A DNA stretch of 64,000 bases from Haloarcula halophila (lineage in GTDB: Archaea > Halobacteriota > Halobacteria > Halobacteriales > Haloarculaceae), in NCBI RefSeq assembly GCF_029278565.1, contig NZ_CP119559.1:744001-808000 (forward strand). Direction: 5' to 3'. Under the pieces are notes generated by a model. It was not told the DNA's origin. It did no database searches and saw only the letters and a program-made list of their open reading frames with translations. Of this stretch, positions 28,360-33,698 are shown piece by piece. The first letter of the stretch is position 1. Every line of letters starts with the position of its first letter. A program made the position numbers and the translations under genes.

Positions 28360-29064
28360 TCAGTCGCCGGCAGCGACAGCGCCCTCGCTCTCGGCGATCG
28401 AGACGAGCGTCGTCCGGCCGTAGAGGGCGATCAGGCCGAAGCCGACTTTCGTCACCACGTCCAGGTAGGTGATCACCAGCGCGGTCGTCTCGACGTCCAT
28501 GAGAGCGATCCCCGCCTGACCGAGCACCCAGACGACTGGATAGACCAGCCACAGGACGACGACGAAGTTCCGCAGCGTCCGGTAGAGTCCCGCTTCGATG
28601 TCCGAGAGTGAAGCTGTCGCCGTGGCCGCGACGTCACGGTAGAGCAGATAGACGACGCCGGCGAAAGCCAGGCCGCCGAGCGCGAACAGCCCGTAGCTCA
28701 CCGGAGACGACGTCACTGCTCCGGCGAAGCCGAAGACGATCGTCAACGCCTGCAGGGCGACGAGTTTGGCGAGGTCCTGCCGGGAGGCGTGTGCCAGCAG
28801 GCCGAGATAGAGGACGTTGATCGGGGTCGTCAACAGCCAGTCGACGTACCGGACCACGTAGACGGTATGCCCGTCGCTCTGGACCGTCCCGATCCCCAGA
28901 AAGAGCAGTGCGTAGGCCACGACGGCGATCCCCGGGATCGCGACGAGCAGGAGATACCGTCGTCTGTCGCTCTTCGGGACGAGCGTGTAGCCGTATGCCA
29001 GTACGGCCGTCCCGAGCAGTTCACCGAGCAGTCCCAGCATGAACCAGGTCGTTATCGTGTCCAT
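28360..29064 (-). CDS. sop2: Sensory rhodopsin II-type photoreceptor
   Basis: 234-aa seven-helix retinal protein, a blue/green-light receptor for phototaxis. Retinal Schiff-base Lys-206 (LDVVTKVGFG) with Thr-205, a residue typical of SRII rather than of bacteriorhodopsin; counter-ions Asp-75 (VRYVDWLLTTP) and Asp-202; pocket aromatics Trp-76, Trp-172, Tyr-175, Trp-179. The position of the bacteriorhodopsin proton donor holds Tyr-86, not Asp, so it should not pump efficiently. Tyr-200 matches the NpSRII residue that hydrogen-bonds the transducer. The gene starts 2 bp after the transducer gene stop, the standard htr-sop operon. Confidence 0.93.
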   Translation of the reverse strand: MDTITTWFMLGLLGELLGTAVLAYGYTLVPKSDRRRYLLLVAIPGIAVVAYALLFLGIGTVQSDGHTVYVVRYVDWLLTTPINVLYLGLLAHASRQDLAKLVALQALTIVFGFAGAVTSSPVSYGLFALGGLAFAGVVYLLYRDVAATATASLSDIEAGLYRTLRNFVVVLWLVYPVVWVLGQAGIALMDVETTALVITYLDVVTKVGFGLIALYGRTTLVSIAESEGAVAAGD

Positions 29065-29066
29065 TG

Positions 29067-31397
29067 TTAGTCGTCGGTCGCAGCGGTCGTCTGGCCGTTG
29101 CCGGTGCCGGATGCGGCGTCGACCTCGAAGCGTTCGAGCAGCGATTCCAGTTCCTCCGCGCGGGCCTGGAGTTCACCGGCGGATTCCGAGACCTGCGCGA
29201 TCGATGCGGCCTGGTCTTCGGCCGCACCCGCGACGGTATCGGCCTCGGTCGCAGTCTGTTGGCTGATGTCCGCCAGGTCGTCGATCGTCCCCATGACTTC
29301 CTGTGCCGTACGGGCCTGTTCCTCGGTCGCCCGGTCGATCTCCTGGATGCCGGTGTCGACCTCCTCGGTGTACTGGACGATCGTCTCCAGGGCGTCGACG
29401 GTCTCCTCGACGGTCTCGACGCCTTCGGTGATCCGCTCGCTGGTCGACTCCATCGTCTCGACGGTCTCGCCGGCCTGTGACTGGATGCGTTCGATCCGGC
29501 CCTCGATGTCGCCGGCGGCTTCCTTGGTCTCCTCGGCGAGGGACTTGATCTCGTCCGCGACGACGGCGAAGCCCTCGCCCTGACCGTCGGCGTGAGCCGC
29601 CTCGATCGACGCGTTCAGTGCCAGCATGTTCGTCTGCTCGACGATCGAAGTGATGACGCCGACGATCTCACCGATCTCATCCAACTCGTCGTCGAGCGCG
29701 GTGATCTCTTCGACGGTCGCCTCGGTCTGGTCTTCGATGGCGTTCATCTCGGTGATCGCCTCCTGGGCGGCCTCTCGACCGTCTTCACCGACCTCGGCAG
29801 CCGATTGAGAGGTGTCAGCGACCTGCTGGGCGGAGGAGGCGACTTGCTGTGCCGTCGCCGAGAGGTTCTCCATCTCGCCGGCGGCGGACTCCAGCCCCTC
29901 GTTCTGTTCGGTCGTCCCCTCGAAGATCTCCTGGATGGACTTCGAGACCTGCTGGCTCGCCTGGTCGACCCGCTTGGCGTTGGACTCGACGCGCTCGCTG
30001 GACTGCATCACGCTGCCCGTGAACGAGCGCACGTCCGAGAGGAGGGCTTCCAGCGCGTCGAGGGTCGTGTTTATCTCCTCGCCGACCTCGGCCATCGCGT
30101 CGCTCATGCTTTCGGTGTCGACACGGGCGGTCAGGTCCCCGTTGGCGGCCGCCTCCAGGGCCTGACTGTACTCCTGGGCCTTCAGTTCGAGGTGACTGCT
30201 GAGGGCCTCCATCTCGTTGCGCTCCTGTTCGACCTCCGAACGGGCCTGCTCGGCGTCCTGTTTCGCTTCCTCGGCTTCCTCGCGTGCGCGCTCGGCGGCC
30301 GATATCTGCTCGTCGAGGTTCGTCCGCATGTTGTCGAACGCCGAGTACAGCGTCCCGAACTCGTCTGTCCGGGACGTTTCGAGGGTGACGTCCAGGTCAC
30401 CGTCGGCCATCGCCTGTGCCTTCGTCGAGAGGCGCCGCAGCGAGACGATGGTGTTGCTGCCGATCGTGACCCCGACCAGTCCCAGGTTCACGATCGCGAT
30501 GAGGATCAGGCCGACGAGGTCGGAGTTGATCTGGCTGCTGAGCGCGTAGGCCTGTTGTGGGTTCGCGTGGACCATCACGACCCAGTCGTGAGAGTCCAGT
30601 CGGCTCAGTCCCATGAGCATCGAGTCGGTCTCGACGAAGTCGCTCTGTCCGCCCTCCAGCGACTGGAGCGGGTTCTCGCCCCCCGTGGCGACCGGCGCGG
30701 TCGTCCCGATCATCGAGTGGTTCGGATGCGAGACGAACTGCCCGTCGGTGTTGACCACCGTCGTGAACGATCCGTCGCGCTGGTTCGAGATCTCGTCGGC
30801 CTTGGCACCGAGATCGGTCATGTAGACCAGTGCCCGGTTCTCCGCGCCAGGGACCGGCGAGACGACGGCGATGATCGGGTGGTCGACGACCGAGACGCTG
30901 AACGGTTCCGTCACGTGCGTATCGTCCGGGCTCTCGAACTCCGGAGGATCGGTCGCGAACGGCGCGCCCTGCTCGGCGGCGTTGACGCCGACGAACTCCT
31001 GGTTCGAACTCTCGGTGATCACTCCTGTCTCGGTGTTGACGTAGTGGACCGCGACGACATCCGGTGGAACGGAGTCGGTTTCGATCAGTGCTTCGAGCCT
31101 GTCCTGTCGTTCTGTGGCGGACCCGTCGGCGAAGACGGGGAGGCGTGATGTCGTCCGTACGTCCCGCTGGGTCGTGGTCAGCCAGGCGTCTAACTGTCCC
31201 GCTTGTGTCCCCGATAGCGCCGTCATGTCGGTGGCCACGTCGTCTTCCAGCGTGGCCGAAGCCTGAACGCTGATGACGGCACCGAACGCAACGACGACGA
31301 CGATCGCGAACGCGAGCGCGACACCGAGACGCGTGGCGTAACTGTCACCGACGACGCTCGGGAGCAGTGTGTCCCTCTCTTCGGTCATCTGGTGCAT
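29067..31397 (-). CDS. htrII: Phototaxis/chemotaxis transducer HtrII
   Basis: 776-aa methyl-accepting transducer that passes the SRII signal to CheA/CheW. TM1 ~24-45, a ~245-residue extracytoplasmic dCache-like domain (~47-290), TM2 ~293-315, two HAMP units ([20 protein letters not shown] and [13 protein letters not shown]), and a long signalling coiled coil with the conserved tip [20 protein letters not shown]. The periplasmic domain makes it like Halobacterium HtrII, which also senses serine, rather than the short Natronomonas form; its chemical ligand is unknown. Two starts are possible: 31397 (used here) and the in-frame ATG at 31388, which fits the TATA element GTTTTAGA at ~31416 better for a leaderless message. 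Confidence 0.94.
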
Positions 31398-31565
31398 CTA
31401 GGCAAAAACCGTTCTAAAACGTTGGTCCCCTATTCTCACCACTGATAAGCGGGTGTCGTCGTGCTGTCTGATCGGACCGGGACCGGGGTCGGGATAGCCG
31501 TGGCACAGCGTGCTACCCAATAGCATAATACATGACGAGCGTCCTAGTTCCGACGAACGACCGGT

Positions 31566-32963
31566 ATGTCATCAGACGCCCCCGGGTCTCGGGACCCCCG
31601 ACAGCTCATCGCCGACGTGATCACGGGTGGGGATACCGGTCGCGGCACGATTCCGCCGCTGCTCGGTCTGCTCGACGTCGGCGACCGGCAGGTCCGACTC
31701 GGTGCGGCGACGGCGCTCTGTCTCGTCGCCGAGGAGCATCCCGACGCAGTGCCGGTCCTCGTCCGACGGCTCGCCGACCGGCTCGACGAGGGGCCGGCGA
31801 CGGAACTGGCGCTGTCGTATCTGGCTGTCAGCTATCCCGAGGCGGTCGCGGAGGGCGTCGGCGACCTCACCGACGAAAAGCAAGCGTACATCCGCCGCCA
31901 AACCGCCGTCGGGCGAGGGAACGCGATACTGGACCGGTCGCCGCTGTCGAACCGCGACCTCGGGCGGACGACGCTGCCGGATCAGGGCGACGGCTACGGG
32001 CCACGGAGGGTGTACACCGAAGACGACGAGACGGACCACGGTGGCGGAGCCGGAGGTCAGGAGCAGGATCTGGACGGAGAGCCCGACGCCGCGCCGCTGG
32101 TCGCCGACTCCGACTGGCTCCCGATCGTCGAGTACGAGAGCCCCTTCGACCGGCTCTCGATCCTCGCGCCGCGTGACAGCCGCCGCTACGGTGACAGCTA
32201 CCGCACGCTCGGAATACGCGACGACGACGAATACGCGCTCGCGATCCAGTTGCTCGACCATCCGGCCGGCGAGACGGAGTTCCTCGCCGATCTCGCGTCA
32301 CGGCTCGACGAGTGGGAGAGCGTCAGCGACATCGAGAACGTCCTGGCGCTGTACGGCTGGCACCGGGAGCCGGGACCGTGGATCGCGACGGAGTACACCG
32401 CGGAGACGCTCGAAGACCGCGGGGAGTTTGAGCCTGCCGACGCCGTCTGGCACGCCAGCCAGTTGGCCGGAGCGGTGACGGAACTCCACGAACGGGGGAC
32501 CGTCCACGGCGGTATCGACCCCGAGAACGTGGCGTACTACGGGAACGTCCTCACCGAGGACGAGCGCCAGCCGCCCCTGCTGGACAACGTCGGGCTGTTG
32601 GGGGTCTACCGGTATCACTTCGATCCCGCGACCTACCTCGACCCGCGCTATGCCGCACCCGAATATTACGACCGGCGGTTCGGTCGGGTCGACCACGCGA
32701 CCGACATCTACCAACTCGGCGCCGTCTGTTTCCGGCTGTTCACCGGGCGCGCCCCCTTCACGGGATCGTTCAGCACCATCCGCGACCAGGTACTCGATGG
32801 CGATGTCCCCGCACCCAGCGAGGTCGCTGACGTGCCCGAACCGGTCGACGACATCGTGGGGAAAGCGCTGGCCCGGGAGAAACTGGCGCGGTACGAAACT
32901 ACCAGCCAACTCACACAAGAGCTACGTGCCCTGGGTAACCCAGACACAGGTAGTGGTGATTAG
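31566..32963 (+). CDS. HEAT-like repeat plus degenerate protein kinase domain (pseudokinase)
   Basis: 465-aa protein. Residues ~25-120 form HEAT-like helices (VRLGAATALCLVAEEHPDAV); ~150-180 is an acidic linker; ~185-460 has the fold of a Ser/Thr kinase, but catalytic residues are changed: the VAIK strand reads LAIQ (Gln-228), the HRDxKxxN loop reads HGGIDPEN (314-321, both Arg and the catalytic Asp replaced), and DFG reads DNV (340-342). APE (AAPE, ~366) and the DxYxLG helix (TDIYQLGAVCFRLFTGRAPF) are intact. It is therefore a predicted pseudokinase. Three bases before a membrane protein with a GTG start, so the two are probably one operon. TATA-like GCATAATAC near 31526. Confidence 0.85.
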   Translation: MSSDAPGSRDPRQLIADVITGGDTGRGTIPPLLGLLDVGDRQVRLGAATALCLVAEEHPDAVPVLVRRLADRLDEGPATELALSYLAVSYPEAVAEGVGDLTDEKQAYIRRQTAVGRGNAILDRSPLSNRDLGRTTLPDQGDGYGPRRVYTEDDETDHGGGAGGQEQDLDGEPDAAPLVADSDWLPIVEYESPFDRLSILAPRDSRRYGDSYRTLGIRDDDEYALAIQLLDHPAGETEFLADLASRLDEWESVSDIENVLALYGWHREPGPWIATEYTAETLEDRGEFEPADAVWHASQLAGAVTELHERGTVHGGIDPENVAYYGNVLTEDERQPPLLDNVGLLGVYRYHFDPATYLDPRYAAPEYYDRRFGRVDHATDIYQLGAVCFRLFTGRAPFTGSFSTIRDQVLDGDVPAPSEVADVPEPVDDIVGKALAREKLARYETTSQLTQELRALGNPDTGSGD

Positions 32964-32966
32964 CCG

Positions 32967-33698
32967 GTGCAGATAGGGGGGTTCAGGGTCGAGTTACAGT
33001 TCGTCGCGGACAACCCCAACCTCACGTTCATATTTTTCATTGCACTTACACTTCTGACCGTCCTCGGTGCCCGCTTCAGTTTCTACGCGTATCGGAACAG
33101 ACAGGCGAGTGACCTGGCGACGGACGCACGTCTGTGGGACTATCTCGTCGCCGTCGGCGTCTTCGCTGTCGGGTTCGCCCTGCTCGGCATCGTCGAGATC
33201 GTGACGACGCTTCAGCTTCCGATCAAGGGCAGTCTCGTCCTCGCCCACGTCCTCGTGTTGGCGACAGCGATGCGGGTCCTCTACCGGAGCATCGTCCCAG
33301 CCGGCGAGGAGGATCTGGGGACCTACGAGAGGGTGCTGACACGGGCCGCAGTCGTCGCGGTCGCGGTCGTCGGGATCGGATCGGCGCTCGTCGGCCGACA
33401 CCCGTTCGTCGTCGCCGTCATGGGTATCAGCGCCGGCACGTTCGCGGCGGCAGGCGTCTCCTTCGGCCACCGCGGGGCCGCCGAGACCCGCGTCCAGGGC
33501 ACCGTCATCGACACGCTGTTGCGCCACCTGCTCCCGGTCTTGCTGTTCGGTGCGCTGGTCCCGATTGTCGACCTGGCGACGCTGGCCGGGCTGGATCGAG
33601 CCGTCGTCCTCCACGTCCAGGTGGTGTTCGTCATCATGACCGCGACGACGTTGATGACGGCGACGATCAAGCTCCGACAGAACCTCGCGACGCTGTGA
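32967..33698 (+). CDS. Seven-helix-like membrane protein of unknown function
   Basis: 243-aa integral membrane protein starting at a GTG three bases after the pseudokinase stop. About seven hydrophobic helices: LTFIFFIALTLLTVLGARFS, LWDYLVAVGVFAVGFALLGI, GSLVLAHVLVLATAMRVLY, AAVVAVAVVGIGSALVG, FVVAVMGISAGTFAAAG, LLPVLLFGALVPIVDLATL and VVLHVQVVFVIMTATTLMT. I do not recognise a family; spacing of helices is like small histidine-kinase sensor regions but no kinase or HAMP follows. The pairing with a pseudokinase suggests a sensory or scaffolding module (inference). Confidence 0.75.
   Translation: MQIGGFRVELQFVADNPNLTFIFFIALTLLTVLGARFSFYAYRNRQASDLATDARLWDYLVAVGVFAVGFALLGIVEIVTTLQLPIKGSLVLAHVLVLATAMRVLYRSIVPAGEEDLGTYERVLTRAAVVAVAVVGIGSALVGRHPFVVAVMGISAGTFAAAGVSFGHRGAAETRVQGTVIDTLLRHLLPVLLFGALVPIVDLATLAGLDRAVVLHVQVVFVIMTATTLMTATIKLRQNLATL

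What the first reader, a model, noticed from the sequence alone, without database searches (positions are those of the whole stretch)
31566..33698. HEAT-pseudokinase with a seven-helix membrane partner
All three catalytic landmarks of the kinase are replaced (AIQ, HGG, DNV), yet the fold and the APE and DxYxLG regions remain. Only three bases separate it from a polytopic membrane protein of no known family. This looks like an undescribed signalling or scaffold pair in archaea.
Basis: partly seen in the sequence, partly recalled or inferred. Interest (0 to 1): 0.6.

Follow-up and report, generated by a model that had tools for sequence, protein, structure and literature searches.

The report
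Archaeal dead-kinase and seven-helix membrane pair
Salt-loving archaea carry a conserved, so far undescribed gene pair that makes a kinase-shaped protein which has lost its catalytic residues and a seven-helix membrane protein with the outline of a receptor, so it looks like a membrane signalling or scaffolding unit that does not work by phosphorylation.

Summary
Window 31566-32963 (KIN) encodes an N-terminal HEAT-like domain, a disordered acidic linker and a kinase-like domain. Window 32967-33698 (MEM), three bases downstream, encodes a membrane protein predicted to have exactly seven helices (pLDDT 91). It matches no Pfam or NCBIfam family.

The pair is not local. In 391 genomes of the class Halobacteria, 74 (19 genera, 5 families) carry MEM, and KIN lies directly upstream on the same strand in 72. 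The two exceptions are one genome with both genes apart and one that lost KIN. Within the window's genus both genes are present together in 14 of 32 genomes and absent together in 18.

Across 64 paired KINs the HRD aspartate is never present (0/64). The VAIK lysine is kept in 5, and the structural skeleton (APE Glu, helix-F Asp, helix-I Arg) in 64. Both genes are under purifying selection (dN/dS 0.25 and 0.21).

MEM's model aligns with GPCR folds (Z up to 18), but no sequence relationship was found. The adjacent sensory rhodopsin II pair is not linked by presence or absence.

Best reading: a two-gene membrane scaffold or signalling module. The interaction, ligand and output are inferred, not shown.

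The parts
31566..32963 (+). KIN: HEAT-like domain (aa 1-115), disordered acidic linker (about 116-180), pseudokinase domain (about 184-462)
   Evidence: ORF; Pkinase 1.6e-8, HEAT_2 3.4e-4; model pLDDT >90 over most of both folded domains; Foldseek to M. tuberculosis PknB 2.1e-12; dN/dS 0.25
31566..31910 (+). HEAT-like helical repeats of KIN (aa 1-115)
   Evidence: six helices at high confidence; HEAT_2 up to 3e-10 in relatives
32247..32249 (+). codon of Q228, at the VAIK lysine position
   Evidence: column is K in only 5 of 64 paired KINs
32505..32513 (+). codons of H314-G315-G316, at the HRD position; catalytic Asp replaced by Gly
   Evidence: His 64/64, Asp 0/64
32586..32594 (+). codons of N341-V342-G343, at the DFG position
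   Evidence: Asp in 25 of 64, Gly in 58 of 64
32967..33698 (+). MEM: seven-helix membrane protein, N-terminus out, C-terminus in (predicted)
   Evidence: no Pfam/NCBIfam family; AF2 model with seven helices, pLDDT 91.3; GPCR-like fold, Z up to 18.1; dN/dS 0.21
32964..32966 (+). three-base spacer between the KIN stop and the MEM start; overlaps or short gaps in relatives
31398..31565 (.). 168-bp intergenic region shared with the divergent htrII gene; AT-rich CATAATACAT about 35 bp upstream of the KIN start
   Evidence: sequence; promoter role not tested

Best explanation
KIN and MEM form one functional unit: a seven-helix membrane protein with a soluble HEAT-pseudokinase that it holds at the cytoplasmic face. 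KIN is a haloarchaeal HEAT-kinase lineage that lost phosphotransfer but kept the kinase skeleton, so it most likely works as a conformational scaffold: its pseudokinase domain docks on MEM's inner face and its HEAT repeats present or sequester another protein. MEM would be the receptor or anchor whose conformation sets KIN's state. Shown: catalytic-residue loss, skeleton conservation, predicted seven helices, adjacency, joint presence/absence, congruent trees, purifying selection. Inferred: physical contact, cytoplasmic docking, sensing, effector recruitment.
For: MEM in 74 of 391 class genomes; KIN directly upstream, same strand, in 72. In the genus 14/14 against 0/18, absent as a unit from an otherwise conserved site. 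Between families KIN and MEM are the only neighbours shared throughout. K and M trees largely agree: Spearman 0.91, 44 of 61 splits shared, 4 supported conflicts. Both genes are kept when split: G054 (genus of the Halorussus-type loci), about 90 kb apart, and Halomicrococcus, opposite strands. HRD Asp 0/64, APE Glu, helix-F Asp and helix-I Arg 64/64. Haloarchaea also have a HEAT-kinase with IAIK, HLD and DWG intact, and the window's own genome has a kinase with YRD, so the loss is not an alignment artefact. MEM is predicted to have seven helices, N-out by charge distribution, with its most conserved polar residues (W57, R103, T179, D182, R186, Q238, Y40) all in the cytoplasmic third.
Against: No complex model: the fused prediction gave pTM 0.50 with MEM poorly folded, because its alignment held almost no MEM rows. 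Mean conservation is not significantly higher on MEM's cytoplasmic side (p = 0.16). The paralogous pseudokinase and a solo MEM subfamily exist without each other, so neither half strictly needs the other. One genome of the sample kept MEM and lost the adjacent KIN. No third partner or stimulus is visible from gene neighbourhoods.
Confidence: 0.6

Rival explanations
1. MEM is a transporter, channel or lipid enzyme, and KIN is its regulatory subunit rather than a signal transducer.
For: The paralogous pseudokinase follows a MATE exporter in a TetR-MATE-pseudokinase array (51-87 bp gap in three genomes; a fourth has the MATE gene further upstream). M. tuberculosis MviN carries a pseudokinase domain that regulates a membrane protein (PMC12599244). 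GPCR-like bundles include enzymes; ACER3 is among the Foldseek hits.
Against: MEM has no family-wide conserved His or metal-ligand set; invariant or near-invariant columns include W57, G163, T179, G178, D182, R103, Q238. No transporter family hit.
Confidence: 0.25
2. KIN is an enzyme with non-canonical chemistry (as SelO or SidJ are), not a dead scaffold.
For: Kinase folds can do other chemistry (reviewed in PMC10211241, PMC12599244); 25 of 64 relatives keep a DFG-position Asp and 5 of 64 the VAIK Lys.
Against: In the window's KIN the VAIK Lys, HRD Asp and DFG Asp are all gone, and no alternative polar set replaces them across the family: the invariant residues are mostly structural ones.
Confidence: 0.12
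3. The pair is an accessory of sensory rhodopsin II-HtrII phototaxis, whose genes lie divergently beside it.
For: An HtrII homologue lies in the same stretch in 22 of 30 loci of the window's family.
Against: Within the genus SRII is in 11 of 14 pair-positive and 15 of 18 pair-negative genomes. Outside this family only one locus (f4) holds an HtrII homologue near the pair. One pair-positive genome has only a remnant SRII.
Confidence: 0.05
4. Adjacency is hitch-hiking in a conserved region, with no functional link.
For: Neighbouring genes in the window's family are themselves syntenic.
Against: The same adjacency recurs in 5 families with different neighbours and on secondary replicons; the pair comes and goes together.
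Confidence: 0.04

Closest known systems
Haloarchaeal HEAT-kinases (Halomicrobium mukohataei plasmid, WP_012807427.1)
   Same: N-terminal HEAT repeats, C-terminal Hanks-type kinase domain, same AAPE and TDIYQLG motifs, DWG in place of DFG
   Different: That protein keeps IAIK, a Gly-rich loop and HLD (catalytic Asp), has far more HEAT repeats (941 aa), and no MEM is annotated beside it
Bacterial pseudokinase families (ActPs1-3, GLW, CP1) and EssB/YukC
   Same: Loss of all three catalytic motifs with the fold kept; often membrane-linked; scaffolding proposed or shown (PMC12599244)
   Different: Membrane segments lie in the same chain where present; the passages read name no HEAT domain, no separate seven-helix partner and no archaeal family
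Mycobacterial MviN (MurJ-pseudokinase)
   Same: A pseudokinase tied to a polytopic membrane protein as a regulator (PMC12599244)
   Different: One fused protein; MEM does not match that family by any hit here
G-protein-coupled receptors, classes A and F
   Same: Predicted N-out seven-helix bundle; VIA-align Z 15-18 over 208-231 residues. Smoothened, also in the list, is a GPCR that binds a kinase directly (abstract of PMC13186710)
   Different: No sequence match, Foldseek E only 0.017 at best, no NPxxY in helix 7, no G proteins of that kind known in these archaea (own knowledge)
HisKA_7TM and microbial rhodopsins
   Same: Seven-helix membrane domains common in the same genomes
   Different: No profile-profile relation to HisKA_7TM; no mid-helix-7 retinal lysine and no Bac_rhodopsin hit
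Pseudokinase survey of Kwon et al. 2019, as cited in PMC10211241
   Same: [quoted passage not shown] a strain of this species carries the pair (L151)
   Different: The citing text describes neither the HEAT architecture nor a membrane partner; the original paper was not readable here

Membership tests
Hanks-type protein kinase fold (Pkinase, PF00069) | Significant family hit and kinase fold | tested here: met
   Pkinase 34.7 bits over cut-off 31.7; Foldseek PknB 2.1e-12
Hanks-type protein kinase fold (Pkinase, PF00069) | Structural skeleton: APE Glu, helix-F Asp, helix-I Arg | tested here: met
   64/64 each in paired relatives
Catalytically competent protein kinase | VAIK lysine | tested here: not met
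   Q228; K in 5 of 64
Catalytically competent protein kinase | HRD aspartate | tested here: not met
   G316; Asp in 0 of 64
Catalytically competent protein kinase | DFG aspartate | tested here: not met
   N341 here; Asp in 25 of 64 relatives
Catalytically competent protein kinase | ATP binding or phosphotransfer in vitro | not testable with these tools
   needs purified protein
HEAT-repeat proteins | HEAT repeats | tested here: met
   Below cut-off in this protein but over it in relatives, e.g. 3e-10; helical repeats in the model
GPCR superfamily | Seven-helix N-out bundle of GPCR fold | tested here: inconclusive
   Model and Z up to 18.1 fit; Foldseek not significant; helical bundles can score high by arrangement alone
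GPCR superfamily | Sequence relationship to GPCR families | tested here: not met
   No GPCR-family hit in Pfam for 43 members nor in PDB sequences
GPCR superfamily | Coupling to a heterotrimeric G protein | not testable with these tools
   needs experiment
Microbial rhodopsin (Bac_rhodopsin, PF01036) | Retinal-binding lysine in the middle of helix 7; family hit | tested here: not met
   Only lysine in helix 7 is K235 near its cytoplasmic end, Arg in distant members; no hit
HisKA_7TM (PF16927) | Profile relationship | tested here: not met
   hhalign probability 0.85% against 11 members from the same genome
Bacterial membrane-bound pseudokinases (ActPs/GLW/EssB type) | Membrane segment in the pseudokinase chain itself | tested here: not met
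   KIN has no membrane helix in the model; the membrane part is a separate gene

The most novel reading that the evidence does not exclude
An archaeal receptor system in which a GPCR-fold seven-helix protein senses a membrane or extracellular cue and transmits it to a dedicated, catalytically dead HEAT-kinase scaffold: receptor-to-pseudokinase signalling without phosphorylation, found across the class Halobacteria.
Probability: 0.25. Interest if true: 0.85.

Novelty: new variant of a known kind. Interest (0 to 1): 0.62.

Why it matters
Prokaryotic pseudokinases are little studied, and I found no description of an archaeal one with a defined partner. Here a pseudokinase fixed across a whole class, with a one-to-one membrane partner and culturable hosts (Haloarcula, Halorhabdus, Halorussus), makes the question 'what does a kinase fold do once it cannot phosphorylate?' directly testable in archaea. 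If MEM is a receptor, it would be a GPCR-fold protein with a kinase-fold transducer in archaea.

Tried and rejected
Phototaxis link: adjacent to SRII-HtrII in the window's family but independent by presence/absence within the genus. HisKA_7TM origin of MEM: no profile relation. MEM as a rhodopsin: no retinal lysine. Pseudogene decay: dN/dS 0.25 and 0.21. Viral origin: no relative in viral contigs, though the pair sits on secondary replicons in Halorussus and Haladaptatus. Defence system: only generic kinase-domain matches in PADLOC, nothing for MEM. Complex by read-through fusion (TAG read as Gln): HEAT and pseudokinase folded well, MEM did not, no interface information. Chemotaxis correlation through CheA's PF02895 at E 1e-8: uninformative, because the profile found nearly no genome of the window's own family at that threshold. 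A shared third gene: none common to all families.

Full report
What is there. Two genes on the + strand, 31566-32963 (KIN, 465 aa) and 32967-33698 (MEM, 243 aa, GTG start), are separated by three bases. Upstream and divergent lies a sensory rhodopsin II-transducer pair (28360-29064, 29067-31397) and further on a TFB gene; downstream an SDR gene and two transporters. The window lies in the GTDB genus that includes Haloarcula and Halomicroarcula: the named relatives fetched are H. pellucida, H. rara, H. amylovorans and others.

KIN. Pfam finds Pkinase (1.6e-8, over the cut-off) and HEAT_2 (3.4e-4, below it). A model built on 27 relatives shows a helical N-terminal domain (aa 11-115), a disordered linker (115-180) and a two-lobed kinase-like domain, with pLDDT above 90 over most of both folded domains; Foldseek's best hits are M. 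tuberculosis PknB and related kinases (2.1e-12). In distant relatives HEAT repeats score to 3e-10. The N-terminal HEAT domain is not universal: one relative (L097) starts at the kinase domain.

Catalytic residues. On an alignment of 64 KINs that each sit beside a MEM, the HRD His is 64/64 but the HRD Asp 0/64 (Gly 51, Ala 7, Ser 3, Cys 2, Thr 1); the VAIK Lys is 5/64; the DFG Asp is 25/64; APE Pro and Glu, helix-F Asp and Gly and helix-I Arg are 64/64. The loss is not an alignment artefact: the same genome has a kinase with VLK and YRD, and a Halomicrobium HEAT-kinase has IAIK, HLD and DWG with the same AAPE and TDIYQLG motifs. KIN therefore looks like a degenerate branch of haloarchaeal HEAT-kinases (inference).

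MEM. No Pfam or NCBIfam family for the protein; among 43 diverse members only scattered weak hits, and no PDB sequence. AlphaFold2 on 29 rows gives seven helices (17-47, 51-79, 87-109, 117-142, 146-172, 180-207, 211-242) with pLDDT 91.3 and pTM 0.88. Charge distribution puts the N-terminus outside: about 13 Lys/Arg on the inner side against 4 outside, counted by hand. Foldseek finds only weak hits (best E 0.017) to GPCRs and bacteriorhodopsin; VIA-align places GPCRs on top, Z 15.4-18.1 with 208-231 residues at 3.5-4.4 A. I read this as a GPCR-like seven-helix arrangement, not as homology. HisKA_7TM is not related by profile comparison. The most conserved polar residues (W57, R103, T179, D182, R186, Q238, Y40) are on the cytoplasmic third, although mean conservation does not differ significantly between sides (p = 0.16).

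The pair across genomes. In the genus, MEM is in 14 of 32 genomes and the KIN orthologue in exactly the same 14 (Fisher 2e-9 without correction for relatedness). In eight pair-negative genomes read, the same locus runs TFB, SRII, HtrII and then downstream genes including the SDR gene, without the pair. Across 391 genomes of the class, 74 have MEM (E <= 1e-30), in 19 of 86 genera and five families. KIN is directly upstream on the same strand in 70 of these by listed coordinates, plus G067 and a contig-end case (G385): 72 of 74. Of the two exceptions, G054 carries both genes about 90 kb apart, its KIN being 62% identical to a paired KIN, and G140 has MEM without an adjacent KIN. A plasmid of Halomicrococcus also has them separated but both present. 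In a sample of 247 genomes of the phylum every match lay in the window's own order. Gene families shared between the neighbourhoods of all families reduce to KIN and MEM. Trees of the two genes agree well. dN/dS against the closest relative is 0.25 for KIN and 0.21 for MEM, beside 0.14-0.15 for SRII and HtrII.

Function. The facts support a two-gene unit at the membrane in which the kinase fold is used without phosphotransfer. I propose that MEM holds KIN at its cytoplasmic face and that KIN's HEAT domain recruits or sequesters an effector; a change in MEM (ligand, lipid, voltage) would alter that. Parallels in mechanism, not kinship: the pseudokinase of MviN and of EssB/YukC (PMC12599244), and Smoothened binding PKA-C (abstract of PMC13186710). 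The SRII-HtrII neighbourhood is probably incidental: SRII is in 11 of 14 pair-positive and 15 of 18 pair-negative genomes. A regulatory role for a transporter or enzyme remains open, the more so because the paralogous pseudokinase follows a MATE exporter.

Known or new. PGAP annotates KIN as 'HEAT repeat domain-containing protein' or 'protein kinase' and MEM as 'hypothetical protein'. Full-text searches gave no archaeal pseudokinase-membrane pair. A 2019 survey, cited in PMC10211241, counted seven pseudokinases among eight kinases of Halorientalis regularis; the original paper was not held. So pseudokinases in this group have been counted but, as far as I could find, not characterised, and the partner is new.

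Limits. No interaction, localisation or activity data; the literature library excludes most subscription papers; the genome sample is not the whole class; the fold comparison of MEM rests on one predicted model.

Noticed in passing
L053:6121-9689 (own genome C1, about 1542120-1545690), also L054, L055, L183: Paralogous HEAT-type pseudokinase (36-38% identity, HGG and NVG too) without MEM, downstream of TetR and MATE genes (51-87 bp gap to MATE in three genomes; in L183 the MATE gene lies further upstream).
   Followed up: partly
L202-L206, L208, L209, L122: A second, solo subfamily of MEM (E 1e-16 to 1e-22 to the MEM profile) without KIN, with a longer conserved C-tail; beside a multicopper-oxidase-like gene in one genus and a secreted serine-protease-like gene in another.
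   Followed up: partly
window 28360-31397; L050: Sensory rhodopsin II and its transducer HtrII, divergent from the pair; in G025 (L050) SRII is reduced to a remnant while KIN and MEM are intact.
   Followed up: partly
L201 6323-19416 (Halomicrobium mukohataei plasmid): A cluster of two large kinases (one a HEAT-kinase with IAIK, HLD and DWG), a vWA protein, an AAA ATPase and a 1485-aa HEAT protein; the plasmid has 12 kinase-like places.
   Followed up: partly
L111:8665-13822 and L109: In one family (f2) the pair is followed by a reversibly-glycosylated-polypeptide-like gene and an ABC transporter.
   Followed up: partly
L097:8107-8979: A KIN that lacks the HEAT domain (290 aa) beside an intact MEM; another species of the same genus (L101) has lost the adjacent KIN altogether.
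   Followed up: partly
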